64,000 nucleotides of DNA. Origin: Bradyrhizobium paxllaeri. GTDB taxonomy: Bacteria > Pseudomonadota > Alphaproteobacteria > Rhizobiales > Xanthobacteraceae. The stretch spans positions 2,542,001-2,606,000 of the forward strand of contig NZ_CP042968.1 in assembly GCF_001693515.2 (NCBI RefSeq). The letters are read 5' to 3'. Position 1 is the first letter of the stretch. Every line of letters begins with the position of its first letter. A model generated the notes under the pieces. The model was given only the letters and a program-made list of their open reading frames with translations. It was not told where the DNA came from and made no database searches. Position numbers and translations under genes: made by a program. Shown in pieces: positions 42,974 to 56,765 of the stretch.

Positions 42974-44563
42974 ATGCCAAAGGATCCAAAAAAGCTGGGC
43001 ATCTTTACCGGGCGCGGTCGGATGGTTGCGCTGGCCGTTGCGGCGGGATTGGTGCTGGGTATGGCCGGACCTACCTCGGCACAATTTTTTAATTTCGGCG
43101 GATATCAGCAGCGGCCGCAACCGCAACGCGGGGGCTGGTTTGGCAACGAACAACGCGGTGGCGGCTGGTTCGGTAACGGTCAACGTGGTGGCGGGTGGTT
43201 TGGCAACGACACGTATACGCCATACCAGCAGCAATACGCGCCGCCACCTCGTTCGCGGCAAGCGCCCCAGGCGGCGCGCGAGGATTTTTCAAGGGCGCCG
43301 GCGCCCGAGAAGCGCAACACCGTTCCCGAGCGCCACATTCTTGTGCTCGGCGACTCCATGGCGGACTGGCTCGCCTATGGGCTCGAGGACGTCTATGCCG
43401 ATCAGCCCGAGATGGGTGTGATCCGCAAACACAAGGCAGCCTCCGGCCTGATCAAGTATCAGCCGAAAGGCAGTCCGGCCGATTGGGCCGCCGCCGCCAA
43501 AGGCATTCTCGCCACCGAAAAAGCGGACGCCATTGTCGTCATGCTCGGACTTGACGACCGCGTCGCAATCCGTGAGTCGGCCGCCGATAGATCCGACCCC
43601 AAGCCAGGGGACAAGAAGGAAGCCAAGGCCAGGCCCGACGGCAAGCCTTCGGGCGAAAAACCTGCGGCGAAGCCGGATGGCACATCCAAGGCGGCGGATC
43701 CCGAATTGCCGCCAGACGATGCTGCCGACAGCAATGATGCGCGGCCGGTCACAGGAGAGAAGGGCGCGGGCTCGCCGAGCGGCCTCCATGAGTTTCGCGA
43801 GAAGCGCTGGGTCGAACTCTACAGAGAAAAGATCGACGAGATGATCGGCGTACTCAAGGCCAAGGGGGTGCCGGTGTTGTGGGTGGGTCTGCCTGCGGTA
43901 CGTGGCACCAAGGCGACCGCCGACACGGCCTTTCTCGATACGCTCTATCGCGATGCGGCCGGCAAGGCGGGCATCACCTATGTCGATGTCTGGGACGGCT
44001 TTGTCGATGAAGCCGGGCGCTTTTCACAGCAAGGCCCCGATTTCGAAGGCCAGATCCGCCGGCTGCGTTCCTCCGATGGCGTGTATTTCACCAAGGCCGG
44101 CGCGCTCAAGCTCGCGCATTATGCCGAGCGCGAAATCAACCGGCTGTTGGCCGCGCGTTCCGGCCCGATCGTGCTGCCCACCGAACCGGCAACTCCCGAC
44201 GCCAGCGCGCGGCCGGATCAGCCGGCGCCGCGTCCGCTGGCCGGGCCGATCATTCCCCTGAGGGCCTCTTCTGTCGGGACGGATCAATTGCTCGGTGCTC
44301 CCGGGTCGCGGTCGGTGGCAATCGATGCGCAGGCGGCGCGGTTCTTGATCAAAGGCGAGCCGTTGCCGGCACCCGCCGGTCGTGCCGACGATTTTGCCTG
44401 GCCGCGACGCGAAATAGGAGAAGGGACCAAGGGTGAGACGCCGGTGGCATCAACGTCGCTCGATGCCAACGCACAGGCGCCGGCGGCCTCGCCAAAGCCG
44501 AAGAAGCCGTCGCCCTATGACGCGCGGTTGAGAAAGATCGGCAGCCCTCGCTTGTTGCCGTAG
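42974..44563 (+). CDS. DUF459 SGNH-hydrolase-like exported protein
   Basis: About 529 residues from ATG 42974 (GTG 42959 is also possible). An N-terminal hydrophobic segment (MVALAVAAGLVLGMAGPTSAQ) serves as signal peptide or anchor. Then three QRGGGWFGN repeats form a glycine/aromatic-rich region. The DUF459 domain has the SGNH block I GDS at 126-128 (LVLGDSMADWLAYG), a charged insertion near 205-270, VLWVGLPAVRG as a later block, and SSDGVYFTKAGALKLAHYAE with the Asp/His pair. DUF459 proteins occur in Rhizobiales beside cell-wall or polysaccharide genes; acyl-esterase activity is predicted. The 3' end overlaps the convergent phosphofructokinase gene by 49 bp. Confidence 0.88.
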   Translation: MPKDPKKLGIFTGRGRMVALAVAAGLVLGMAGPTSAQFFNFGGYQQRPQPQRGGWFGNEQRGGGWFGNGQRGGGWFGNDTYTPYQQQYAPPPRSRQAPQAAREDFSRAPAPEKRNTVPERHILVLGDSMADWLAYGLEDVYADQPEMGVIRKHKAASGLIKYQPKGSPADWAAAAKGILATEKADAIVVMLGLDDRVAIRESAADRSDPKPGDKKEAKARPDGKPSGEKPAAKPDGTSKAADPELPPDDAADSNDARPVTGEKGAGSPSGLHEFREKRWVELYREKIDEMIGVLKAKGVPVLWVGLPAVRGTKATADTAFLDTLYRDAAGKAGITYVDVWDGFVDEAGRFSQQGPDFEGQIRRLRSSDGVYFTKAGALKLAHYAEREINRLLAARSGPIVLPTEPATPDASARPDQPAPRPLAGPIIPLRASSVGTDQLLGAPGSRSVAIDAQAARFLIKGEPLPAPAGRADDFAWPRREIGEGTKGETPVASTSLDANAQAPAASPKPKKPSPYDARLRKIGSPRLLP

Positions 44564-45702
44564 ATGGGGCGGTAGCGTTCCGTGTTGTACGTGCTGGCGA
44601 CGTCCAGCTTGCGCGGCCCGAGCTTGGCCTCAGGGATAGGCACGAGGTCGTAGCGCCCCTCCACCAGCGCCGACATGAGGCCGGTCTTGCCTTCCAGGAT
44701 GGCATCATAGGCCATGTTGCCGAACGTCAGGGCCACGAGCTTGTCCATGAAGTCCGGATTGCCGGATCGCAGGTCGTAGGTGAGGTCGGACGTGATCGTC
44801 TCCTCGCCGACGCGCCGCTTGATCTCGTCGGCGAACGATTCCGCCACGCTCGCCTTTTTGCGATGGCCGTAGGCATCGGGCTCGCCGTATTCCTGCACCT
44901 CGTAGCCCTCCCACGCGGCGCCCTCGCTGAGCACGACCAGCGCGTAGTTGCTTGGGTTGGCGCGCTTCTCCTCAAGGAGCAACCGGATCAGCTTGTCGAG
45001 ATCGACCTTGTACTCCGGTATGACGCACCGTATCGAGGTGGCGTAGGCGGTGTAGAGCGCCGTAAATCCGGCATCGCGGCCAAAGACGCGGAAGATGCCT
45101 ATACGCTCGTGCGAACCGACAGTGGTGCGCTGCCGCTGGATCGCGTCGCTGGCGCGGGTGATCGCGGTCGAGAAGCCGATGCAGTACTCGGTGTTGCGGA
45201 CGTCATTGTCCATGGTCTTCGGAATGGCGATGATCTTGACGCCGAGTTCGTTCAGTCTGGCTGCGTAACTGAGCGTGTCGTCGCCGCCGATGGCGATCAG
45301 GTGCTCGATGCCGAGCCCCGAGAGGTTAGCCAGCACCTGGCCCGAAACGTCCCACGTCCTGGTTGCGATGCCGCCCTTGGTGCTGAGCGAGGCTGGAAAG
45401 TTCTGGCCTGCGAGATGATCCGGCAGCTTCTTCATCTTGGACGGGTTGGTACGACTCGAGTGCAGCACGGTGCCGCCGCTCCGGTCTATGGTGCGCGTGT
45501 TGTCACGGGTCAGCGGGATGATGTAGTGGGACCTAGAGGCCGGGTCCTCGAGGTTCACATGCGTGAGGGCCTCCCAACCACGGCGGAGGCCGACGACCTC
45601 GATGTCGTTCTCGCTGCCGCGATAGGTCACGCTCTTGATAACGGCGTTGAGACCGGGAACATCGCCGCCGCCCGTGAGAATGCCGATACGCCTTTTTGCC
45701 AT
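44515..45702 (-). CDS. 6-phosphofructokinase, probably PPi-dependent
   Basis: About 395 residues from ATG 45702; GTG 45708 is the alternative. The N-terminal loop is TGGGDVPGLNAV. Key residues are GGDD at 139-142, where ATP enzymes have GGDG, and PKTMDND at 161-167, where ATP enzymes have PGT. These Asp and Lys residues mark PPi-dependent phosphofructokinases. It phosphorylates fructose 6-phosphate, reversibly if PPi-linked. The aldolase/phosphatase gene lies 21 bp upstream, with the same direction, so the two form an operon controlling flux through fructose 1,6-bisphosphate. Confidence 0.88.
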   Translation of the reverse strand: MAKRRIGILTGGGDVPGLNAVIKSVTYRGSENDIEVVGLRRGWEALTHVNLEDPASRSHYIIPLTRDNTRTIDRSGGTVLHSSRTNPSKMKKLPDHLAGQNFPASLSTKGGIATRTWDVSGQVLANLSGLGIEHLIAIGGDDTLSYAARLNELGVKIIAIPKTMDNDVRNTEYCIGFSTAITRASDAIQRQRTTVGSHERIGIFRVFGRDAGFTALYTAYATSIRCVIPEYKVDLDKLIRLLLEEKRANPSNYALVVLSEGAAWEGYEVQEYGEPDAYGHRKKASVAESFADEIKRRVGEETITSDLTYDLRSGNPDFMDKLVALTFGNMAYDAILEGKTGLMSALVEGRYDLVPIPEAKLGPRKLDVASTYNTERYRPIYGNKRGLPIFLNRAS

Positions 45703-45723
45703 ACCCACCTCGCAGGCGATCCC

Positions 45724-46869
45724 TTATTCGGCGGCTTCCGGCTTGCGCTCCTCGCGCACCTGAAAGCGCTTCAGCAGTGAGGACACGGTGTCGCGGAAGC
45801 CACCATACTCTAGTTCGGAGTAGGGCAGCATCGCGGCACCAGACCAGCCCTGGCTGCGCATCTCGATCGCCTTGCGCTGGGCGAGCCGGCGGACCTCGTC
45901 CCACGCCGGGTTGTCGAAGAAATCGGTATAGGACTCCGCGAAGCGGCCGTCCTTGTCGATCGAGAAGCCGGCGCAGGAAACGATCGGCAGGCAGTACATT
46001 CCCGTCACCGCTGTGTTGAGCGGCACGGGCATCAGCGGCATCACGTGCGAGCCGCGCGCATCGCCGCCCACGAAGTGCGCCTTGGCAAATGGCGAGGTGA
46101 TCTCTTCCGGCGCCGGGAAAATCCCCTGATTCCTGACGATCGCGACCGGATCATCCTTGCCGGTGTACTTGCCTGCGATCGCGTGAAGGCGCTGCGCCGA
46201 AACGGCGGCGGCGACCTCGCCATGGGTCCGGGAAACGATGCGATCGATGCCAAAGCGCTCGTTGTCGCGGAGCAGCGCGGCAATCTGGTAGCCATCCGCG
46301 GGCGCGTCGAGTTCGATCACGCTGTCGCCGGCCGTATGGTCCATGTCGATGACATGGAAACGGAAACCCTTGATCATCGGGGGGAGCATCAGCCCGGCGC
46401 AATACATGGGATCGGCGAAGGCAAGGTAGAGCGGCAGGTTGTAGGCGCCGGGGCCGCATTTGTCGGCGGCGAACACCATGAAGGACTCCGCGGCCCTCGT
46501 GCCCGAGAGGCTGTGGTCGAAGCTGAGCTCGGCGACGCCCGGGCCGGCGCCGCGAACGTTTCCGGATGGTGCGTCGACGAGAAGATCCTGGCCGGCGCCA
46601 TATAGCCCGGAGGTTTTCGCGACCGAGGTGGCGGCGAGGAACGCCTTCCAGGCAAGTTGATGCACCTCGGAGCTTCCTTCGCCCCGTGTGTGCGTCATGA
46701 TGATCGCGATGTCGTCGCCGGTGTGGCAGACGAAACTGTCGATCAGCAGACCATCGCAGATCGCCTTCGCAACCTCGCCTTCGACGGCCGCCATCATGCG
46801 TGTGGACGGCTTTGTGTGCCCGCCGACGGAGCCTATGTCAGCCTTGATGACCGAAAGGGTGAGTCTCAT
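45724..46869 (-). CDS. Archaeal-type (class V) fructose-1,6-bisphosphate aldolase/phosphatase
   Basis: 381 residues. The start LTLSVIKADIGSVGGHTKPS carries the Asp/His Mg ligands (D11, H18), HTGDD (49-53) and AGQDLL (92-97) supply more ligands. The catalytic pair of the aldolase step, Tyr 235 and Lys 238 in AGKYTGKDDPV, is retained, matching Tyr229/Lys232 of the archaeal enzyme. So both activities (aldol condensation and dephosphorylation to fructose 6-phosphate) are predicted. GGAGGAAAC precedes the ATG. This enzyme is known mainly from archaea and deep-branching bacteria. First gene of the operon with phosphofructokinase. Confidence 0.9.
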   Translation of the reverse strand: MRLTLSVIKADIGSVGGHTKPSTRMMAAVEGEVAKAICDGLLIDSFVCHTGDDIAIIMTHTRGEGSSEVHQLAWKAFLAATSVAKTSGLYGAGQDLLVDAPSGNVRGAGPGVAELSFDHSLSGTRAAESFMVFAADKCGPGAYNLPLYLAFADPMYCAGLMLPPMIKGFRFHVIDMDHTAGDSVIELDAPADGYQIAALLRDNERFGIDRIVSRTHGEVAAAVSAQRLHAIAGKYTGKDDPVAIVRNQGIFPAPEEITSPFAKAHFVGGDARGSHVMPLMPVPLNTAVTGMYCLPIVSCAGFSIDKDGRFAESYTDFFDNPAWDEVRRLAQRKAIEMRSQGWSGAAMLPYSELEYGGFRDTVSSLLKRFQVREERKPEAAE

Positions 46870-47223: not shown

Positions 47224-48474
47224 ATGTATCATCGGAGTGTACCGGACCCTGTTCACGGGGTTCCCGTCGGTCGCAAGGGTATGCTCGGGCACGATCTGCC
47301 GGACTCGTGGTGGCTTTCCGCGGATTCATCGCCGCGCCTCCTGGCCCACACGGGAGATAACAGCGCCGGGAACGGCGGCAAAGGTTACTTTGCCGGGAGC
47401 CTGATCAATAGCAGCTACGCCGGTTTCGAGCCGCTCAACGTGGCGTGGCCGGGTGTCCATGCGACGGCCTCCGCCCTTCAGACGAACATCGCCTATTTTG
47501 ATCAGTCTGCGACCCAGATCGCGGGAGTTGGCGGTGATGGCGGCAATTGGAATGCCGCATCGGGCGGAAGCGTCGGCGTGTTCGGGCCTGTCGGCCATGG
47601 CGTGATTGCAACGGGTGACAACGGCGCCGGCAATGGTGGCGATGGCTACTTCTCCGGAGCAATGGTTCATGCACCCGTCGCGGTCTATAGTCCGATCAAC
47701 ATCGCGGTGGCGGGAAACAATTCCAGCGCTCACGCTGATCAGACGAACCATGTGGTATTCGACCAATCCGCGCTTCAGATGGCCGGCGTCGGGGGCGATG
47801 GCGGGAACGGTAATGCCGCGATTGGCGGAGACGTGTCGGCCTCCGGAAATGACCACGGGCCCCACCAATCCATCGGCGGATCAGGCCTCGCCTCGAACCA
47901 CGGCGGGATGATGGGCTCCAATGTGATCGCGAGCGGGGATAATCACGCGGGCAACGGCGGAGACGGATACTTTTACGGGGGGCTCGTCCACGCGACCTTT
48001 GCGTTCTACTATCCGATCAACATCGCAGTGGCGGGATACAACTCCACCGCCAACGCCGATCAGACAAACAATGTGGTGTTCGATCAATCCGCGGTTCAAA
48101 TGGCCGGCGTCGGGGGTGATGGCGGGAGCGGCAACACCGCGATTGGCGGAAGTTCGGACATTTTCTCTTCTATCTTCGAATTGATTGGCTCCGATGTCAT
48201 CGCGACCGGCAACAACAGCGCCGGCAACGGCGGCAACGGCCATTTTTCGGGAAGCGTGGTCGACGTCAACGTGGCGATCTACGCCCCGATCAACATTGCT
48301 GTCGCCGGCTACAATTCAACGGCCGAAGCTTATCAGAGCAACAACGTAGAGTTCGATCAGAGCACGATCCAGATTGCCGGAATCGGTGGTGACGGCGGCC
48401 ACGGCAACACTGCGCTTGGCGGCGATTTCGCCTTGGACCTGTTATCGGACCTCCACTTGCTGGATCACGCCTAG
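47224..48474 (+). CDS. Gly/Asn-rich repeat protein, candidate type I secretion substrate
   Basis: About 416 residues from ATG 47224 (GTG 47170 would add 18). No signal peptide, no Cys. Four units of about 75 residues at roughly 41-115, 128-202, 236-309 and 326-400. Each opens with GDNxAGNGGxGYFxG, has a hydrophobic strand-rich middle (PINIAVAGYNSTANADQ, then NNVVFDQSAVQ) and closes with AGVGGDGGxGNxAxGG. The regular Gly/Asn/Asp turns and alternating V/I/F suggest a beta-solenoid or amyloid-like fibre. The C-terminus ALDLLSDLHLLDHA is hydrophobic/acidic, as in type I secretion signals. A second protein with the same motif pair and an ABC/HlyD exporter follow. I recognise no named family. Confidence 0.75.
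   Translation: MYHRSVPDPVHGVPVGRKGMLGHDLPDSWWLSADSSPRLLAHTGDNSAGNGGKGYFAGSLINSSYAGFEPLNVAWPGVHATASALQTNIAYFDQSATQIAGVGGDGGNWNAASGGSVGVFGPVGHGVIATGDNGAGNGGDGYFSGAMVHAPVAVYSPINIAVAGNNSSAHADQTNHVVFDQSALQMAGVGGDGGNGNAAIGGDVSASGNDHGPHQSIGGSGLASNHGGMMGSNVIASGDNHAGNGGDGYFYGGLVHATFAFYYPINIAVAGYNSTANADQTNNVVFDQSAVQMAGVGGDGGSGNTAIGGSSDIFSSIFELIGSDVIATGNNSAGNGGNGHFSGSVVDVNVAIYAPINIAVAGYNSTAEAYQSNNVEFDQSTIQIAGIGGDGGHGNTALGGDFALDLLSDLHLLDHA
47344..48423 (+). repeat. Four coding repeat units of about 225 bp
   Basis: Units at 47344-47568, 47605-47829, 47929-48150 and 48199-48423, separated by variable spacers of 37-100 bp. Units 2-4 share long stretches such as CCGATCAACATCGC and GATCAATCC, and each ends in a GGCGATGGCGG-type glycine run. 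Unit 1 is the most diverged. Confidence 0.75.
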
Positions 48475-48483
48475 AGTTGATTC

Positions 48484-48504
48484 CGTTTCGATAGAATCGA
48501 AACG
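48484..48504 (+). other. Short hairpin just after the repeat-protein stop
   Basis: CGTTTCGAT-AGA-ATCGAAACG: perfect 9-bp stem with a 3-base loop, 10 bp after the stop. May stabilise the 3' end of the upstream message. Confidence 0.5.
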
Positions 48505-48538
48505 TGGCTCTGGAGTTTTGACGTGTTTTCTTGACGCG

Positions 48539-48577
48539 AGCCCACCCCCGGAGCAAGCCCGGGGTGGGCTTTCGTTT
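48539..48577 (+). terminator. Intrinsic terminator between the two repeat-protein genes
   Basis: AGCCCACCCCCGG pairs with CCGGGGTGGGCT (one bulged C), loop AGCAAGC-like, followed by TTCGTTT. Strong GC stem plus a T-rich tail, so gene 1 may be transcribed separately or partly read through into gene 2. Confidence 0.65.
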
Positions 48578-48760
48578 GAAGACGCTCTGGCGGCATTGGA
48601 GCTGTCCGGATTTCGGCGGCGAGAGGTTAGCATTTCGGGCGTACACCGTCGCTTCGGGTGGCATCAGCTTTGGCAGCTAGATCGATCCGGCATCCAAATC
48701 CAAGATCGTTGCTGTCCACATTGGGACGCACAGTGTGCAAACCAGCTCAGGGAGACTGAC

Positions 48761-49258
48761 ATGGCAAAGGCATCGTTTCCTTCCGACACGATCGTGATCA
48801 AGGCTTCGACCGGCGGCAACAACGCAGGCAACGGCGGAGACGGCATCAACAAGGGTGACATCACCAGCAAGCCCAGTATCGAATTCAATCCGTACAACAA
48901 GGCCGATGGCGCCGACGTCGACGTCAAGACCGGCGACCACGTTTATCAGAAGGCCTATTGGGACGCCGGGGGCGCGAATGCGAAGGCGGAGAAGCATTCG
49001 AAGGCAGAGGGCGGAAAAGCCGTATCGAATGGCGACCAGAAGTCGGACAGCGGCCACAACAAGTCCGACGTGGACGCCGATACGTCGGCCTATCAGAAGA
49101 ATTACCTCAAGGTGGACATGAGTCAGAACGTGTGGGCCGGCCTCGGCGGCAATGGCGGAGACCACAACACCGCGAAAGGTGGTGACGTCGACGTCAATAT
49201 CCTGAACGACTCGCTCAACAGTCACGAGACCTACTATATCGACGAGGGGCACGGCTGA
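48761..49258 (+). CDS. Short Gly/Asn-rich protein, single-unit relative of the repeat protein
   Basis: 165 residues from ATG 48761 with GGGAG upstream. No signal peptide and no Cys. It carries one copy of the motif pair of the upstream protein: GGNNAGNGGDG at 18-28 and AGLGGNGGDHNTAKGGDV at 126-143. Between them lies a strand-rich part (VDVKTGDHVYQKAYW) and a Lys/Asp-rich, probably disordered insert (about 72-105). The C-terminus is acidic and aromatic (HETYYIDEGHG). The ABC exporter gene starts 118 bp later. Likely a co-secreted partner, cap or nucleator of the longer protein (inference); no named family recognised. Confidence 0.7.
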   Translation: MAKASFPSDTIVIKASTGGNNAGNGGDGINKGDITSKPSIEFNPYNKADGADVDVKTGDHVYQKAYWDAGGANAKAEKHSKAEGGKAVSNGDQKSDSGHNKSDVDADTSAYQKNYLKVDMSQNVWAGLGGNGGDHNTAKGGDVDVNILNDSLNSHETYYIDEGHG

Positions 49259-49376
49259 TCGACGTTTCCGAGGGGCAGAGAACCGGCAGCGGGGGGCTGC
49301 CGGTTCTCACTTCACCAGCGAAGTGGCGAAAGACGGGGCGGGAAGGCCCGGACTTCAGATATCTGGCGGGAACGCA

Positions 49377-51173
49377 ATGCTGATGTCACCGCACCGGCTG
49401 CAAACGATGTCACCAGCGCGAACCCCGTTGAAGGCAGCCTTGCGGGCTTGCGCGGGATCGCTCGGGCTCGTTTTCGCATATAGCTGCAGCTATAATCTTC
49501 TTCTCCTCGCACCTTCGATTTATCTGCTTCAGATCTATGACCGCGTCCTGTCGAGCCGCAGCGGCGCTACGCTCCTGATGCTGACGCTAATCGTTGCGTT
49601 TACCGTCGTAATTGGCGGCGTGCTTGATGCACTGCGCCGCGCTGCATTGGGCCGGATGGGCGAGTGGCTTGAAGAGGAACTCCATCCGGCGACGCTCGCC
49701 ATGTGCTTCAAATACGCCTATGAAGCCGATCGGTCGCGGGCATCGGAAGCTTATCGCGATCTTGCAACCCTGCGTCAGTTCGCGCAGTCCGGAGCTTGCT
49801 CGACCCTGTTTGACGTGCTCTGGACGCCGCTCTTCCTCGGCGTTCTCTTCCTCGTGCATCCGTTGCTGGGCGTGATCGGCACACTGAGCGCGCTTCTCCT
49901 GCTTGGTCTCGGGCTTCTCGGCGATCGGCTCACCGAGGGCCCGCTGGCGCGGTCGGCCGCCGCACAGACGAGGAGTCAGGGGTGGTTCGGTATGGCGGTC
50001 GGAAACCTCCACGTGATCAGGGCCATGGGAATGCTCGATGGTGCCGCGCGCCTGATCCGCCAGGCTGCGCAGGATGCGAGGTGCGAGCAAGAGGTGGTCC
50101 AGCGCCGCAACGAGACCATCATGCTGATCTCCAAACCCGTGCGGGCGCTGACGCAGGTGCTGATCATGGGCGCTGCCGCTTGGCTCGTCCTGGAACAGGG
50201 CAGGAGCCCGGCCATAATCTTTGCTGCGAGCATGCTGTTCGGACGCGCGCTCCCGCCGATCGAAGGGGCGATTGCGGGCTGGAAGGCGTTCGCGACGGCC
50301 CAGGCCGCCTACCGCCGGCTCAACGGCATGATGTCCGCTGTCACGCCGGTGGCGAGCGTCAAGGCCATCCCGGACGGGCCGAAGGGAGATCTCATCGTGA
50401 ACAATGTCGCCGCCGTCCTGCCAGGAACGAGCCACTTGTTCCTGAACGGCGTTTCGTTCTGTCTGGCGCCTGGTGAATGCCTTGGCATCATTGGTCCGTC
50501 CGGCTCCGGCAAATCCACGCTTGGCAAGATCGTCACGGGAATCTCCGCTCCGACGGCAGGCTCGGTCCTGCTCGATGGCATCGACATTTCGGTCGTGCGC
50601 GATCTGGGCGGCGGCCGGCGCCTCGGATATCTGCCGCAGGATATCGATCTCTTCGGAGAAACGGTAAAGGACATCATTGCCCGGCTGGACGACGCCGATT
50701 TGCAGAAGGTCATTGACGCGGCAAAGCTGGCCGGCCTTCACGAGACCATCATTCGGCTGCCGCAGGCATACGATACGGTCCTCGTTGGCGGAGGCGCCAA
50801 TCTTCCACGCGGGTTTCGCCAGCGCCTCGGCCTTGCACGGGCGTTCTTCGGCGACCCGCACCTCGTGGTTCTCGACGAGCCGAATTCCAGCCTCGACTCG
50901 CTTGGCGAGCGCATGCTGTTCGACGCCATTGAATGGATGAAGGCGGCCAATACCACGGTCATCATCATCACCCACCGGATCGGAATTCTGGGTGTAACGG
51001 ACAAGATTGCCATCATGCAGGACGGCGCGGTTACCGCCTTCGGCGAGAGCAGGGAAGTTTTCGAGAGGTGTTTGACGCGCCCGCAAGTTGCTTCGCGTGA
51101 GCCAATGCGAGGTGGTTCGAACCAGAACGGCGAAAGCAGCATTGGCGCCTCACCGCAACCGATTTTGCCATGA
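49377..51173 (+). CDS. Type I secretion ABC permease/ATPase (PrtD/LapB-like) with degenerate signature
   Basis: About 598 residues from ATG 49377. No N-terminal peptidase or CLD domain, as in the PrtD/AprD group. Six membrane helices lie in the first 300 residues (LLLLAPSIYLLQIYDRVLSS is typical). In the ATPase, Walker A GPSGSGKS starts near 373, the Q-loop is GYLPQDIDLFG, Walker B is LVVLDEPNSSLD and the switch His is in IITHRIG. The signature motif, normally LSGGQ, reads LPRGF at about 476-480. Because the rest is intact, it is probably still active. It exports proteins in one step with the HlyD-type protein (next gene, 47 bp on) and an unlinked TolC. Confidence 0.9.
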   Translation: MLMSPHRLQTMSPARTPLKAALRACAGSLGLVFAYSCSYNLLLLAPSIYLLQIYDRVLSSRSGATLLMLTLIVAFTVVIGGVLDALRRAALGRMGEWLEEELHPATLAMCFKYAYEADRSRASEAYRDLATLRQFAQSGACSTLFDVLWTPLFLGVLFLVHPLLGVIGTLSALLLLGLGLLGDRLTEGPLARSAAAQTRSQGWFGMAVGNLHVIRAMGMLDGAARLIRQAAQDARCEQEVVQRRNETIMLISKPVRALTQVLIMGAAAWLVLEQGRSPAIIFAASMLFGRALPPIEGAIAGWKAFATAQAAYRRLNGMMSAVTPVASVKAIPDGPKGDLIVNNVAAVLPGTSHLFLNGVSFCLAPGECLGIIGPSGSGKSTLGKIVTGISAPTAGSVLLDGIDISVVRDLGGGRRLGYLPQDIDLFGETVKDIIARLDDADLQKVIDAAKLAGLHETIIRLPQAYDTVLVGGGANLPRGFRQRLGLARAFFGDPHLVVLDEPNSSLDSLGERMLFDAIEWMKAANTTVIIITHRIGILGVTDKIAIMQDGAVTAFGESREVFERCLTRPQVASREPMRGGSNQNGESSIGASPQPILP

Positions 51174-51220
51174 CACGCGGCACACCTTCTTAACGCTTTG
51201 CCCGAAGGAAACCGGATCTC

Positions 51221-52726
51221 ATGAAAACTTCTTTCGCTCATATCGGGATTCGAGAGGTCTCACGGCGGTTGAGATCGGTGACGCCAGCATTCTGCGATCG
51301 GCTGCTCCGTATCACCTGGATCCACATCAAGCATTTTGACCTCTTTGCCCGAAGGGGATGGGATCGTCTGAAAATTGCATTTGCTCACGCTGAGAGTTGG
51401 GAAGCCCCACGGTGGCTGAGATCGGCGCCGCCGGCACTTCGCGAACGGCTTCGCGGGGTCACCTGGACAGGAAACCTGCTTGTGTTCGGCTTTGTCGTCG
51501 GTCTCGGTATCTGGTCGACCTATGCCCCGCTCGAGAGCGCCGCGATTGCGATTGGCACCGTCGAATCCGAGTCGAGCCGCAAGACGATTCAGCACCTCGA
51601 GGGTGGCATCATCAGGGAAATTCTGATCGCGGACGGTGACGTTGTCCGCGCTGGACAAACGCTGATCTCGCTGGAGGACACCAAGGCCCGTGCCGAGGCC
51701 CAGAGCCTGCAAGGCCAGCTGTGGGAGGCGACGGCACGTGAAGCACGGCTGCAGGCGGAACAGCGCGGAGAGGAGCGGGTGTCGTTTCCGGCCAGGCTGG
51801 AGATGGCGCAGATGGCGAGTCCCTCAGTCGCGGATGTCCTTGCGGGTCAGCAAGCCATCTTCGAAACGCGCCGGCAGGTCTTTCAATCGCAAGCGGCCGT
51901 AAACCGGGAGAAGAGATCGCAGGTGGAAAAGGAGATCGAGGGCCTCAGGGCGCAGGAAAGCGCGGCCGCAAGGCGCATCGACATCGTCCGCGAGGAAGCG
52001 GCAACCGTCGCCACGCTCGTCAGCAAGGGGCTGGAGCGGCGTCCGCGCCTTCTGAACCTCGAGCGGGAGATCGCTGACATCGAGGGACGGCGGGGGGAGA
52101 TTGTCGCGCAGATATCGCGCGCCGGGCAGGTCATCAGCGAATCCGAGGCAATTCTCCTCAAACTGGAGCATGACCGTCAAAACGAGATCGCTCAGTCGCT
52201 GCGCGAGGTACAGAACCAGATCTTTCAGGTATGGGAACGACTGCAGGCGGCCGGTGACCAACTCTCGCGAACGGCGGTCAAGGCACCCGAGGACGGCGTT
52301 GTAACCGACCTGAGGGTCCACACCCCGGGTGGCGTCATTGGCGCCGGAGCAGCTCTCATGGACCTGGTTCCCCGGCAAGATCGGCTCATCGTGATTGCGC
52401 GCGTCAGGCCCGAGGATATCGATGTGGTCCGTCCCGGATTGAGCGCCGACGTGAATCTGTTGCCCTACAATCAGCGCCGTGTGCCGCGCCTCCATGGGAC
52501 TGTGACGCACGTTTCTGCCGACCGTCTGGTCGACAAGCGCACCGATCAGCCCTACTACGCAACGAAGATTCGCGTGCAGGATCCGGCAAGCACCGGGATC
52601 GATGGTGTCCAGATTGTTCCGGGAATGCCGGCCCAGGTGTTCATCAAGACGGGCCGCGGCACAGTGGCGCTGTATGCCCTCAGCCCTCTGCTCGATAGCT
52701 TCCACAGCGCGTTCCGCGAGGATTAA
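51221..52726 (+). CDS. HlyD-family type I secretion membrane-fusion protein
   Basis: 501 residues. One inner-membrane helix at about 85-105 (NLLVFGFVVGLGIWSTYAPLE), lipoyl half motifs (GTVESESSRKTIQHLEGGIIREILI near 112), a long coiled-coil hairpin (about 150-330) and the HlyD C-terminal part (APEDGVVTDLRVHTPGGVIGAGAALMDLVP; then LPYNQRRVPRLHGTVTHVSAD). The cytoplasmic N-terminus before the helix is about 80 residues, longer than normal, and consists of two related segments (LRSVTPAFCDRLLRITW and LRSAPPALRERLRGVTW), a tandem duplication. Partner of the preceding ABC protein. Confidence 0.93.
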   Translation: MKTSFAHIGIREVSRRLRSVTPAFCDRLLRITWIHIKHFDLFARRGWDRLKIAFAHAESWEAPRWLRSAPPALRERLRGVTWTGNLLVFGFVVGLGIWSTYAPLESAAIAIGTVESESSRKTIQHLEGGIIREILIADGDVVRAGQTLISLEDTKARAEAQSLQGQLWEATAREARLQAEQRGEERVSFPARLEMAQMASPSVADVLAGQQAIFETRRQVFQSQAAVNREKRSQVEKEIEGLRAQESAAARRIDIVREEAATVATLVSKGLERRPRLLNLEREIADIEGRRGEIVAQISRAGQVISESEAILLKLEHDRQNEIAQSLREVQNQIFQVWERLQAAGDQLSRTAVKAPEDGVVTDLRVHTPGGVIGAGAALMDLVPRQDRLIVIARVRPEDIDVVRPGLSADVNLLPYNQRRVPRLHGTVTHVSADRLVDKRTDQPYYATKIRVQDPASTGIDGVQIVPGMPAQVFIKTGRGTVALYALSPLLDSFHSAFRED

Positions 52727-52786: not shown

Positions 52787-52885
52787 GCATGATCCGGAAA
52801 AGTGTGTAGCGGTTTTCCGAAGAGATCATGCTCAAACAAAAAGCTAAAGCGGGATGACGATTCGAAGAAAAGTCATCACGCTTTA
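52787..52885. repeat. Dispersed palindromic repeat with GCATGATCCGGAAAA arms
   Basis: GCATGATC-CGGAAAA pairs with TTTTCCG...GATCATGC, followed by a second stem TAAAGCGGGATGAC/GTCATCACGCTTTA. This two-stem unit is a well-known intergenic repeat of Bradyrhizobium and Mesorhizobium genomes. Here it lies between convergent genes and overlaps the stop of the LuxR regulator; it may serve as terminator for both. Confidence 0.8.
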
Positions 52886-53638
52886 GGCATGACCGTTGGC
52901 TCGCCGGCTCCAGCGAACGACCGCCTCGGTGCGGTTATGTGCGGAGCATTTTCGCATGATACGTTGAATATGCATCTTTACGGTGTTTTCCGAAAGGTTC
53001 AGCCTGACGGCAATCAACTTGTTAGGAAGGCCAAGCTGCAGCGCCTCGAGCACATGTTGCTCGCGCGGCGTAAGATCGACCATCGCCTTCTCCGGCACAA
53101 TCCTGGTGGCGCCGTTAGCCTCGTCAGTTCCGAATAGCTCGGGCGCTTCGGGGCATCCCGATATCGTCTTGTGGTTCGATGCTCCACTTTGCCCAACGAT
53201 CGGTAGCGGCCGGTAGACCCCACCGGCAAGGACCAGGCGTAATCCGGCAATAGCGACTTCGACCGGGATCGATGTCGGAAAGAAGCCGCGCACGCCGCGT
53301 TGCATCGCAGCCGAAGCCGTCGCATCGTCGTCGCGATTTGACAGCACGGCAACGGACGCATTCGGGCAGGTTTCTGCAAGGAAGGCGAGGCTCTCCTCGA
53401 CCGAAGGATCAGTGATTTGCTGGTGCCCGATATTCAGCGCAATCAAGCGGATGTCTCTGCCGGATAGCCAGTTCAGGCTACCAGTCGTTGCCATCTCGAC
53501 GATCTCGAATCCAGTGAGCTCTCTTTTGAGAATATTGAGCATGCATGTACGCGCCAGCACATGTTGCTCGATGATCACGAGCACCGGCGAGTTTTGCGAT
53601 ATCAAGGCTAGTTCCGCGGGATTAGAAAAATCGTCCAT
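52883..53638 (-). CDS. LuxR/NarL-type regulator with phospho-acceptor-less receiver
   Basis: 251 residues. The N-terminal part follows the receiver fold (VLVIIEQHVLARTCMLNIL; RLIALNIGHQQI; VAVLSNRDDD; GVRGFFPTSIP), but the acceptor position is Asn 69 instead of Asp, the acidic pocket is E24-Q25 only, and the conserved Lys is missing. A C-terminal LuxR HTH spans about 188-245 (LTPREQHVLEALQLGLPNKLIAVRLNLSENTVKMHIQRIM). So it probably works without phosphorylation. It converges on the secretion genes and is the best candidate for their regulator. Confidence 0.88.
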   Translation of the reverse strand: MDDFSNPAELALISQNSPVLVIIEQHVLARTCMLNILKRELTGFEIVEMATTGSLNWLSGRDIRLIALNIGHQQITDPSVEESLAFLAETCPNASVAVLSNRDDDATASAAMQRGVRGFFPTSIPVEVAIAGLRLVLAGGVYRPLPIVGQSGASNHKTISGCPEAPELFGTDEANGATRIVPEKAMVDLTPREQHVLEALQLGLPNKLIAVRLNLSENTVKMHIQRIMRKCSAHNRTEAVVRWSRRANGHA

Positions 53639-53840: not shown

Positions 53841-54446
53841 CTAGCTGCAAATATTACGGTACGCGCTCGCCGCAGCCGACTTGGCGGGGCCATCGACGAC
53901 GTATGCTTCATCTTCCGTCACAAGATATAGAAACGGCCTATCTCCGGTGTCTTCGCCCGACGTCGTTTTTCCTTTGACTCGGCCGCAAATGGTGTCGACG
54001 GACTGCCCGAGCGTATTTTTGCGGATGGCCCGTTTCATCTCACCGAACTCGGCGGACGCCGGGTCCTCCAACTTCGCTGCAATCGTGGTCTTCGCCTTGA
54101 TCATGACCGGATCGGACGTCTCAGCGGGCCGACCAGATGCCGGAGCGTCGACCTTCGCTTCGATCATGGCGGGCTTCGCCTTTTTCTCGGCGAGTTGAGG
54201 CCCGTTGCGAATGTGGACAATCGACGGCTCTTGCGTCTTCGTTGCGATTGTGGATTTGACTTTTGTTGCCGCGGAATGGGTCTTGGATGACGCTGGCCCC
54301 GGTTCAACCGGCCGACCGGCCGCCATCCCGTTGAGACAGCCGGACCCACTCGCGTCCGTGCATGCTTCCATACTTGCTTGCGGCGGTAAAAGGCAGCTAC
54401 AGCCAACCAGGGTCGCAGCCAGAGCACCAATGAGAAGCGTTCTCAT
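53841..54446 (-). CDS. Putative lipoprotein of unknown function
   Basis: 201 residues. Lipobox LVGC with Cys 16; three more Cys in the next 25 residues. A Lys/Thr/Ala-rich linker (about 55-120) with two repeated segments, MIEAKVDAPASGRPAE and MIKAKTTIAAKLEDPA, precedes a folded C-terminal part (SAEFGEMKRAIRKN, VDTICGRVKGKTTSG, RPFLYLVTEDEAYVVDG). The FGEMKRA...CGRVNxKNxxG pattern resembles small exported proteins common in Rhizobiales. Position next to the secretion locus may be coincidental. Confidence 0.7.
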   Translation of the reverse strand: MRTLLIGALAATLVGCSCLLPPQASMEACTDASGSGCLNGMAAGRPVEPGPASSKTHSAATKVKSTIATKTQEPSIVHIRNGPQLAEKKAKPAMIEAKVDAPASGRPAETSDPVMIKAKTTIAAKLEDPASAEFGEMKRAIRKNTLGQSVDTICGRVKGKTTSGEDTGDRPFLYLVTEDEAYVVDGPAKSAAASAYRNICS

Positions 54447-55253: not shown

Positions 55254-56528
55254 TCAGGCCGCGCGGGCGGAGCCTCTGGGTCGATAATTGTCGGGTAACG
55301 GAGGGACTTCGACTGGCGCGGTGGAACGAGGTCCTGAGGGGGGAATCATCGCCTGCTCGGCGAGAAGGAAGCCGTAGGCTGCGATGCACAGCGTTGCGTG
55401 ATGGTGGAAGCCACGCCAGCCGCGCCCTTCGTAGTGGCCGAGCCCGACCTCCTGCTTGAGTTCCTGGTAGTCGCGCTCGATGCGCCAGCGCAGCTTGGCC
55501 AGATCGACGAGTTGCGTGAAGCTGACGTCCTCCGGCAGCGTGGAGAGCCAGTATTTGGTCGGCTCTGCCTCGCCCTCCGGCCATTCGATCAACAGCCACT
55601 CAGGTGATAGCGTCTCGGGGATCAGCTTGTTGTAGCTGACGCGGACAGGTACACGCGCGAAGCGCGAGGACAATTGCTCGGCCGAGCCTTCGCGCCACGT
55701 CACCGTGCGCCACGCCCGCTTCGGTAGACCGAGCGCCACTTTTTGGGCCGAGATCAGTGCGGGCTCGTCACGACGGCCGGTGTTGTTCATCGGCTTGTCC
55801 ATCCGCCGTGGGGCGCTGCCAGGGGCCCACATCAGGATGGTCGGCACGATGCCGACCACGTAAGGCACGCCAAGTTCCGTCATGCCTGCGCGCAGCCGCG
55901 TGTCCCTGCCGTATGCTGCATCCATCAACGCAACGCCGCGTGGCAGGCCGCTTTCGCAGGCCCAGCCGATTTGCTCCAACGCGATCTGTAGCTTGGTCCT
56001 GAACTTGAGTTGCTTGGGAACGCCTGCCTTCTTCCGCCGTGCACGATCCTTTGACCAGGCTTCCGGCAAGTACAAGCGATAGGCCACCGGCAGGCTGGCG
56101 GCATGATTGGCGATCGACAGCGACACCGCCACCTGGCAGTTGGCCTGCTTGCCGAGCTGACCGCAATATTGGTGGTGCACGCCGACCGAATGCTTGCCCT
56201 GCTTAGGGAACGAGGTGTCGTCGATGATCCACGCCTCGATCGGTCCACTCTTCTCGATCGCCGGCAGCACCATCTCGCGTACCTTGGCCAGCACGGTCTC
56301 GTCCGACCAATCGGCGTTGGCGACAAAGTGCAGCAGCGACTGGTGCTGTGCCGCTGTCCTCGCCGGAGCCGTCCGCGCTGCCATCGGCTCAACGCTCTTG
56401 CGGTCACCGGGCAACATCAGTCCCGTACAATAGTCGCGCAGCGGCCGCGTCCGCTCCGCGTGACCGATCACGCTTCCAAGTCCCGCAATGTAAGACGCGA
56501 ACCGTGCTTCGCTTTGATCAAGATCCAT
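55254..56528 (-). mobile_element. IS701-family transposase gene (insertion sequence core)
   Basis: About 424 residues from ATG 56528; the frame is open to 56579 but MDLDQSEARFASYIAGLGSVIG is the usual start of this family. DDE-type catalytic residues: first Asp in WIIDDTSFPKQGKHSVGV, second Asp in GVALMDAAYGRDTRLR, Glu in RWRIERDYQELKQEVGLGHYEGRGW. The reading frame is intact, so the element could be active. Terminal inverted repeats were not located with confidence; the ends probably lie near 55150-55250 and 56600-56640. No passenger gene. It separates the small protein at 54841 from the stress module. Confidence 0.9.
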
Positions 56529-56765
56529 CCGGGCCCTCCCGCGTGCCAAAGATCGAATCCCATCAAATACTTGATTCACGGCCTCAAGGACTGCGACCGC
56601 TTGACTCAGTAGTGCTAAGCTGCACTACGTAGAGATCTGCACAGCAGTATCGACATAACACTACTCCAGTACATAAGTCGGTGTGCTACCGGGGTAGCAC
56701 CAGCGGCGGCGAGCGGAAAGCGATCGACAATGGTGAGGCGAGTTCGACTCGAAGCCGTCCTGACT

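What the first reader, a model, noticed from the sequence alone, without database searches (positions are those of the whole stretch)
47224..52726. Self-contained export cassette for a new Gly/Asn-rich repeat-protein pair
Two adjacent genes encode proteins with the same paired motifs: N-x-A-G-N-G-G-x-G and A-G-[VIL]-G-G-[DN]-G-G-x-x-N-x-A-x-G-G. The first has four units of about 75 residues; the second has a single unit with a Lys/Asp-rich insert. Both lack signal peptides and Cys and are followed by a type I ABC exporter and HlyD adaptor in the same direction, with a LuxR regulator converging. Known type I substrates are mostly RTX or adhesin proteins; these units are not classical RTX nonapeptides. 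Inference: exported fibre or biofilm-matrix protein plus a smaller nucleator or cap.
Basis: partly seen in the sequence, partly recalled or inferred. Interest (0 to 1): 0.85.

Follow-up and report, generated by a model that had tools for sequence, protein, structure and literature searches.

The report
Secreted repeat-protein pair with own exporter
Some soil bacteria, among them partners of legumes, carry a five-gene module that very probably exports two related repeat proteins of an undescribed family, which would give a long-orphaned secretion system of Rhizobium (TobDE) its missing cargo; whether the cargo builds a surface fibre is still a guess.

Summary
Window 47224-52726 (a Bradyrhizobium genome) encodes a 416-aa protein with four 75-aa Gly/Asn-rich units and a 165-aa protein with one unit split by an insert, then a PrtD-type ABC exporter, an HlyD adaptor and a converging LuxR regulator. 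No Pfam, NCBIfam or PDB sequence match. Linkage to the exporter is strict: of 146 Bradyrhizobium genomes the same 52 have repeat protein and exporter; ABC, HlyD and LuxR genes lie beside it in 49 of 49 named loci (24 outside Bradyrhizobium). In Rhizobium johnstonii 3841 the locus is tobDE, published in 2008 as a type I system without known substrate; these proteins are its likely cargo. AlphaFold gives each unit a ~40-aa beta core (pLDDT 80-85 at its centre) and disordered linkers; the best Foldseek ranks are FapC/CsgA amyloids, none significant, and the curli/Fap Q/N-X10-Q/N signature is absent. A published tobD mutant had normal biofilm, nodulation and supernatant. Export cassette: strong. 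Fibre: plausible, unproven.

The parts
47224..48474 (+). ORF1: 416-aa four-unit Gly/Asn-rich repeat protein (proposed major cargo)
   Evidence: this Met is where several relatives start
47344..47568 (+). repeat unit 1 (75 aa)
47605..47829 (+). repeat unit 2
47926..48150 (+). repeat unit 3
48199..48423 (+). repeat unit 4
48430..48465 (+). conserved C-terminal tail (consensus GGDxxxHLLSDLHL in Bradyrhizobium), predicted helix; candidate type I secretion signal
   Evidence: L407 invariant, H411 and L412 near-invariant in 51 rows; helix 279-290 of the model, pLDDT under 50
48761..49258 (+). ORF2: 165-aa single-unit protein with Lys/Asp-rich insert (proposed minor cargo)
48806..48910 (+). first half-unit of ORF2
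   Evidence: profile 2-36, E 1.4e-4
48911..49072 (+). Lys/Asp-rich insert of ORF2
49073..49183 (+). second half-unit of ORF2
   Evidence: profile 39-75, E 1.6e-4
49278..49308 (+). 13-bp perfect stem-loop between second cargo gene and exporter; not followed by a T-run
49377..51173 (+). TobD-type type I ABC exporter (PrtD family)
50802..50816 (+). degenerate ABC signature LPRGF in place of LSGGQ
51221..52726 (+). TobE-type HlyD-family adaptor
52883..53638 (-). NarL/FixJ-type regulator with degenerate receiver domain
   Evidence: linked in the loci
53841..54446 (-). small lipoprotein-like protein (LVGC near the N-terminus, by eye), conserved neighbour in Bradyrhizobium only

Best explanation
A dedicated type I secretion cassette (the Tob system). 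A NarL/FixJ-type regulator with a degenerate receiver probably switches on synthesis of two homologous cargo proteins: a major one with four (in relatives up to eight) beta-forming units joined by disordered Gly/Asn-rich linkers, and a minor one with a single interrupted unit. Both leave the cell in one step, unfolded, through the TobD-type ABC exporter and its HlyD adaptor, probably led by a conserved C-terminal helix, and fold outside, where the units most likely stack into a surface-bound or matrix-bound beta-repeat polymer with the one-unit protein as starter, cap or cross-link. A stem-loop after the second cargo gene probably makes cargo message exceed exporter message. Shown here: gene order, homology of the two cargos, strict linkage and co-inheritance with one exporter clade, identity with tobDE (by position and order in the genome), the stem-loop and its covariation, the degenerate signature. 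Inferred: secretion itself, the signal, regulation, assembly outside.
For: The same 52 of 146 Bradyrhizobium genomes have ORF1 and a TobD-type ABC (E <= 1e-140), 94 have neither. Order ORF1-ORF2-ABC-HlyD-<LuxR-<lipoprotein-like gene in 50 of 51 fetched genomes; the 51st is cut by a contig end, its ABC being on another contig. ABC, HlyD and LuxR beside ORF1 in 49 of 49 named loci (a capped list), 24 of them outside Bradyrhizobium, although gene order is rearranged in Rhizobium; an ORF2 in 48 of 49 (42, six more; L138 is fragmentary). Divergence of ORF1 tracks that of ABC, HlyD and LuxR (r 0.98, 0.96, 0.97 over 62 loci). In R. johnstonii 3841 the three best ABC matches lie at 91.5 kb, 671-672.6 kb (best) and 3.85 Mb, matching RL0072 (ToaD), RL0623 (TobD) and RL3658 (PrsD) in order, and MscL (RL0602 in the paper) is at 651 kb (PMC2275737). 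Each unit is predicted as a beta core (centre pLDDT about 80-85) with disordered linkers. Unit number varies.
Against: No secretion experiment on these proteins was found. tobD::Tn5 in strain 3841 did not change the supernatant profile in Y-mannitol medium, biofilm rings, motility or nodulation (PMC2275737). Overall model confidence is low (mean pLDDT 50, pTM 0.40). Foldseek to amyloids: E 0.07-10, probability 0.04 or less, and unrelated SufB/SufD chains stand in the same lists. The Q/N-X10-Q/N spacing of curli/Fap is depleted. The exporter's signature motif is degenerate, so its ATPase may be weak. Shared ancestry alone also produces correlated divergence.
Confidence: 0.6

Rival explanations
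1. The two proteins are secreted by the cassette but work as soluble or polysaccharide-bound matrix or adhesion proteins (like the Rap proteins of R. leguminosarum), not as a polymer.
For: Rhizobial type I systems are known to export such proteins (PMC2275737, section read; RapD paper PMC9298526 seen in the listing only). Modular repeats and acidic composition (32 acidic, 5 basic residues in ORF1) would suit ligand or metal binding.
Against: No cadherin-like domain among the Pfam matches (E <= 0.1) of 94 relatives; the minor protein is a one-unit homologue, as in subunit/nucleator pairs.
Confidence: 0.22
2. ABC and HlyD export something else (a small molecule or an unlinked protein) and ORF1/ORF2 stay inside the cell, for example as chaperone or storage proteins.
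For: No tobD-dependent supernatant protein was found in 2008 (PMC2275737), whose authors themselves raise non-protein cargo.
Against: Complete co-occurrence (52 of 52) and conserved C-termini of ORF1; no other gene is conserved in the cassette in all 15 representatives.
Confidence: 0.08
3. The cargo acts against other cells (bacteriocin-like or host-directed).
For: Type I systems often carry such cargo (general knowledge); patchy presence in the genus (52 of 146).
Against: No enzymatic or toxin domain by Pfam or NCBIfam in either protein; no gene recognised as immunity-like beside them; strongly conserved repetitive units.
Confidence: 0.05
4. A diverged RTX protein pair.
For: Gly/Asp-rich repeats beside a type I exporter; one loose match (GGNGGDHN) in ORF2.
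Against: 0 of 210 ORF1 relatives and 0 of 121 ORF2 relatives have three or more GGxGxDxU nonapeptides; 15 of 210 have at least one.
Confidence: 0.04

Closest known systems
TobDE of Rhizobium leguminosarum bv. viciae 3841 (RL0623/RL0622; PMC2275737)
   Same: The same system: the best match of the window ABC in that genome is at the tobD place (55% identity), with ORF2 and ORF1 homologues about 0.1 and 1.0 kb away.
   Different: The paper found no substrate and, in the parts read, did not name the neighbouring repeat proteins; gene order differs (ORF1 divergent).
Fap functional amyloid of Pseudomonas (FapC/FapB)
   Same: Works-like resemblance: beta repeats of about 40 aa separated by longer disordered linkers, with a smaller homologous partner; top Foldseek rank for two models (Fap facts from passages of PMC6173800 and PMC11787515).
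   Different: No Sec-like N-terminus, no FapD/FapF-type gene recognised in the cassette, no Q/N-X10-Q/N spacing, no Cys (so no CxxC) in the window proteins; matches not significant.
PrsDE and ToaDE type I systems of rhizobia
   Same: PrtD-type ABC plus HlyD adaptor.
   Different: Their ABCs lie outside the Tob clade and have LSAGQ/LSGGQ signatures; RTX/Rap/glycanase cargo for PrsDE, unknown for ToaDE (PMC2275737).
CsgD/VpsT-type regulators
   Same: LuxR-type output domain and receiver without conserved phosphorylation residues; VpsT (3kln) is among the PDB matches.
   Different: The VpsT match is to the DNA-binding part; no W[FLM][TS]R c-di-GMP motif by eye (motif recalled). NarL matches better.

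Membership tests
Type I secretion system (PrtD type) | ABC protein over the TIGR01842 cut-off | tested here: met
   547.2 bits, cut-off 510.15
Type I secretion system (PrtD type) | HlyD-family type I adaptor over TIGR01843 cut-off | tested here: met
   367.6 bits, cut-off 208.65
Type I secretion system (PrtD type) | Canonical ABC signature LSGGQ/LSAGQ | tested here: not met
   0 of 51 Bradyrhizobium and 0 of 24 other Tob-type ABCs (in one of the 24, L138, only a piece aligned); 4 of 4 other PrtD-type ABCs of the same genome over the cut-off have it. This lowers 'ordinary PrtD exporter', not homology to the family
Type I secretion system (PrtD type) | TolC-like outer membrane channel | not tested
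   none recognised in the cassette; genome not searched
Type I secretion system (PrtD type) | C-terminal uncleaved secretion signal on the cargo | tested here: inconclusive
   conserved tail and low-confidence helix; needs export assay
TobDE of R. leguminosarum | Orthologous ABC at the tobD place | tested here: met
   place by order and spacing; locus tags not seen in the record itself; 19 Tob rows one side of a branch, 100/100 support
RTX proteins | Tandem GGxGxDxUx nonapeptides | tested here: not met
   0 of 210 and 0 of 121 relatives with three or more
Curli/Fap functional amyloid | Q/N-X10-Q/N repeat | tested here: not met
   offset 11: 40 seen, 82 expected in 78 non-redundant units; offsets 12 and 22 most enriched
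Curli/Fap functional amyloid | Sec signal on the subunits | tested here: not met
   no hydrophobic N-terminus in the two window proteins by hydropathy
Curli/Fap functional amyloid | CsgG/FapF-type channel beside the subunits | tested here: inconclusive
   no further gene conserved in all 15 representative loci; no dedicated search for these channels was made
Curli/Fap functional amyloid | Stacked beta-solenoid fibril fold | tested here: inconclusive
Curli/Fap functional amyloid | Amyloid fibres, ThT/Congo red binding | not testable with these tools
   bench
CsgD/VpsT regulators | Receiver without conserved phospho-Asp | tested here: met
   N, S, G, D or K at that place among 18 regulators aligned, by eye
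CsgD/VpsT regulators | W[FLM][TS]R c-di-GMP motif (recalled) | tested here: not met
   not seen by eye in 18 aligned regulators

The most novel reading that the evidence does not exclude
The pair is a new, Sec-independent class of functional amyloid: a multi-unit fibre subunit and a one-unit nucleator exported together through a single-step type I channel whose ABC motor has lost the canonical signature, perhaps so that export is slow or gated and fibre growth is controlled at the exporter. To my knowledge (recalled; none stood in the listings) no amyloid-type fibre with its own ABC exporter is described; this would also be the function of the orphan TobDE system.
Probability: 0.28. Interest if true: 0.85.

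Novelty: new variant of a known kind. Interest (0 to 1): 0.62.

Why it matters
It gives a candidate cargo, testable with an existing mutant strain, to a rhizobial secretion system left 'enigmatic' in 2008, and adds an undescribed family of probably exported repeat proteins found in rhizobia, their relatives and metagenomes, whose named members are called 'hypothetical' or, twice, 'PE-PGRS'. The clade-wide degenerate signature in an exporter encoded by a single ABC gene poses a clean question about how such a motor works: the passages that I saw of a review on degenerate sites (PMC7756269) treat them in heterodimers and full transporters, where the second site stays canonical.

Tried and rejected
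RTX membership: rejected. Known domain: none for the two proteins (one NCBIfam row for ORF1 at E 0.11, far below its cut-off); in 94 relatives scattered Pfam matches at E <= 0.1 (27 to DUF4774, best E 1.2e-4; 8 to DUF4141; 2 and 1 to two more; none in the window protein; not followed up). PDB by sequence: nothing at E <= 1 or E <= 10. First full-length model was poor (mean pLDDT 42); the second (units 2-4, 94 sequences) is better in the unit cores only. Terminator idea: a strong hairpin follows ORF1 in the window, but over 52 loci hairpins after ORF1 are no stronger than inside the ABC gene (median -18.3 against -19.1 kcal/mol), so it was dropped; the one after ORF2 is real (41 of 52 with stems of 10 bp or more, control 39 of 1040) but has no T-run, and the pattern scan lists no terminator on that strand. 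Curli/Fap spacing: negative. Symbiosis link: strong NodA match in 42 of 52 genomes with the cassette and 42 of 94 without (p 2e-5), but without correction for kinship, 10 genomes with only weak NodA matches were counted as without, and nodA lies 2.6 Mb away in this genome: not used as evidence. Reach: class search matched only the own genome of 385, order 6 of 397 in two genera, family 3 of 198; these sample few genomes a genus and score only the top few candidates in each, itself capped, shows more genera. The unit profile gave one marginal half-match elsewhere in the phylum (E 7.7e-4, G1166), not followed up.

Literature searched without finding a cargo for TobDE or this family: (open-access library only; supplementary files not searched). 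Papers: PMC2275737 abstract, five sections and passages; PMC6173800, PMC11787515, PMC10925705, PMC7756269, PMC8277102 passages only; all others listing only.
Full report
What is there. The window lies in an 8.38-Mb single-contig genome of a Bradyrhizobium (nearest named protein hits are Bradyrhizobium). ORF1 (47224-48474) and ORF2 (48761-49258) carry the motifs exactly as reported. The conserved unit is 75 aa with consensus IxTGxNxAGNGGDGxFxGxxVxxxVAxYxPxNIAVAGxGxxAxAxQTNxVxxDQxAxQIAGIGGxGGxGNxAxGG. A profile of 34 units matches only ORF1's four units and two half-units of ORF2 in the genome (19 of 34 first-look candidates scored), so ORF2 is one unit opened by an insert. ORF1 relatives mostly have four units, a few metagenomic ones up to eight, by counts of the P-[IVL]-[NH]-[ILVMF]-[AST] core (149 with four, 28 with five, 4 with six, 2 with eight, 27 with two or three, of 210 counted, which are the listed hits of two capped searches plus the window's). 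Where a source names a listed relative of ORF1 it is 'hypothetical protein' or, twice, 'PE-PGRS family protein'; many have no name (120 listed in each). One ORF2 relative is named 'RodZ'. Cys is absent from 182 of 210 ORF1 and 119 of 121 ORF2 sequences.

Linkage. In 146 Bradyrhizobium genomes drawn from the genus, 52 have ORF1 and 52 have a TobD-type ABC at E <= 1e-140, a cut chosen to shut out paralogues (9 candidates scored in each genome); the two sets are identical. In 51 fetched neighbourhoods the order ORF1-ORF2-ABC-HlyD with converging LuxR and a further small lipoprotein-like gene is kept in 50; in the 51st the contig ends. The flank upstream of ORF1 is not kept: the window's phosphofructokinase and fructose-bisphosphatase genes are seen there in only 5 of the 51, in one of them 4 kb away. 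Among 49 named loci with a relative of ORF1 (a capped list: 25 Bradyrhizobium; 24 Rhizobium, Phyllobacterium, Brucella/Ochrobactrum, Ensifer, Microvirga or unnamed Rhizobiales) ABC, HlyD and LuxR matches are present in 49 (two of the 49, L138 and L140, with partial matches or another order); ORF2 in 42 by tblastn and in six more by motif. In Rhizobium ORF1 is divergent from ORF2-ABC-HlyD, so the linkage has survived rearrangement. Clustering of 15 representatives puts ORF1, ABC, HlyD and LuxR in 15 of 15 and ORF2 in 14 of 15 (the fifteenth, L140, has an ORF2-like gene); the other clusters in ten or more loci are frames lying across these genes, judged by coordinates; the lipoprotein-like gene is in the four Bradyrhizobium only. 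Pairwise divergence of ORF1 and ABC, HlyD, LuxR correlates at 0.98, 0.96, 0.97 over 62 loci (51 Bradyrhizobium, 11 of the 24 others), none of 999 permutations as high; shared vertical descent contributes to this.

Identity with TobDE. Krehenbrink and Downie (PMC2275737; abstract, sections 8, 9, 13, 18, 27 and passages read) named tobDE (RL0623/RL0622) in R. leguminosarum bv. viciae 3841, noted a similar B. japonicum protein with similar neighbours, found no secreted protein that needs tobD, and called the system enigmatic. In that genome the best match to the window's ABC (55%) is at 670.9-672.6 kb, the next two at 91.5 kb and 3.85 Mb, in the order of RL0623, RL0072 (ToaD) and RL3658 (PrsD); the single MscL match, RL0602 in the paper, is at 651 kb. 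I did not see the locus tags in the record itself. ORF2 and ORF1 homologues lie about 0.1 and 1.0 kb from tobD. The paper states that no gene within 10 kb encodes a known type I substrate: the two were of no known family. I infer that they are the cargo.

Exporter. TobD-type ABCs lie on one side of a branch against eight paralogues (19 of 62 Tob rows used, 100/100 support; some paralogues have long branches). Their ABC signature is degenerate: 51 of 51 readable Bradyrhizobium copies (L080 holds no ABC) read [LF][PS]RG[FYL]; of 24 from other genera 22 read LLRAQ, one LRPGQ (Microvirga, L140), and in L138 only a piece aligns, with the motif at its edge. In the 22 the Walker B ends in LDDP instead of LDEP. 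The four other PrtD-type ABCs of the window's genome above the family cut-off, and ToaD and PrsD of 3841, read LSGGQ or LSAGQ. The GKS of Walker A, the Q-loop and the H-loop are kept in the 19 Tob rows shown. Only one ABC gene is in the cassette, so a homodimer would have two non-canonical sites. A review on degenerate sites (PMC7756269, passages) treats them in heterodimers and full transporters. Whether TobD hydrolyses ATP slowly, is gated by cargo, or pairs with another ABC is open.

Stem-loop. Directly after ORF2 (49278-49308) stands a 13-bp perfect stem. Of 52 Bradyrhizobium loci 41 have an uninterrupted stem of 10 bp or more within 110 bases of the ORF2 stop, against 39 of 1040 random places in the same loci; so do 6 of 12 loci of other genera looked at, with different letters. 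In ten selected stems of equal length all 130 cells pair and five of 13 pairs show changes on both sides; 36 of 500 shuffles also reach five such pairs, none reaches the covariation score or the 13 cells changed on both sides. The ten were chosen for equal length, so this is illustration more than test. It lacks a T-run. The most likely role is to protect or end the cargo message, so that cargo exceeds exporter; the E. coli hly operon has a comparable break between cargo and exporter (recalled, not looked up).

Regulator. The output domain is NarL-like; the N-terminal part matches a receiver domain (2qsj, E 5e-8; Pfam Response_reg only at E 0.13) but has no conserved phosphorylation residue. 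That it controls the cassette is inferred from linkage only.

Judgement. That ORF1 and ORF2 are cargo of this exporter: about 0.88. That they assemble into an extracellular beta-repeat polymer: about 0.5-0.6. The published lack of a tobD phenotype (supernatant gels, biofilm rings, motility, nodulation) speaks against a constitutive biofilm role, but a cell-bound polymer would be missed in supernatants, and a cassette with its own regulator may have been silent.

Noticed in passing
window 53841-54446 (-): Small lipoprotein-like protein without Pfam match, next to the regulator in 50 of 51 Bradyrhizobium cassettes but not in the 11 loci of other genera clustered.
   Followed up: partly
window 50802-50816; L113 and other Tob loci: Degenerate ABC signature (LPRGF, FSRGY, LLRAQ) across the exporter clade, plus LDDP Walker B in 22 of 24 loci outside Bradyrhizobium.
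   Followed up: yes
L113:3259-3597 (-) and 17 further loci: A lone HTH_Tnp_1 (transposase OrfA-like) gene stands directly behind the HlyD gene in 18 of the 24 named loci outside Bradyrhizobium, 71-96% identical to the first, and in none of the Bradyrhizobium loci; perhaps domesticated.
   Followed up: partly
window 44515-46869 (-): Phosphofructokinase and FBPase_3 genes side by side directly upstream of the cassette; seen there in 5 of 51 relatives.
   Followed up: no
window 55254-56579 (-): Transposase gene (DDE_5) about 0.8 kb beyond the lipoprotein-like gene.
   Followed up: no
G000:C1 5.17-5.49 Mb: The genome has two full-length nodA matches and a third, broken one with a stop; described only.
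   Followed up: no
P0246, P0250 (metagenome proteins): ORF1 relatives with eight units, showing expansion of the repeat number.
   Followed up: partly
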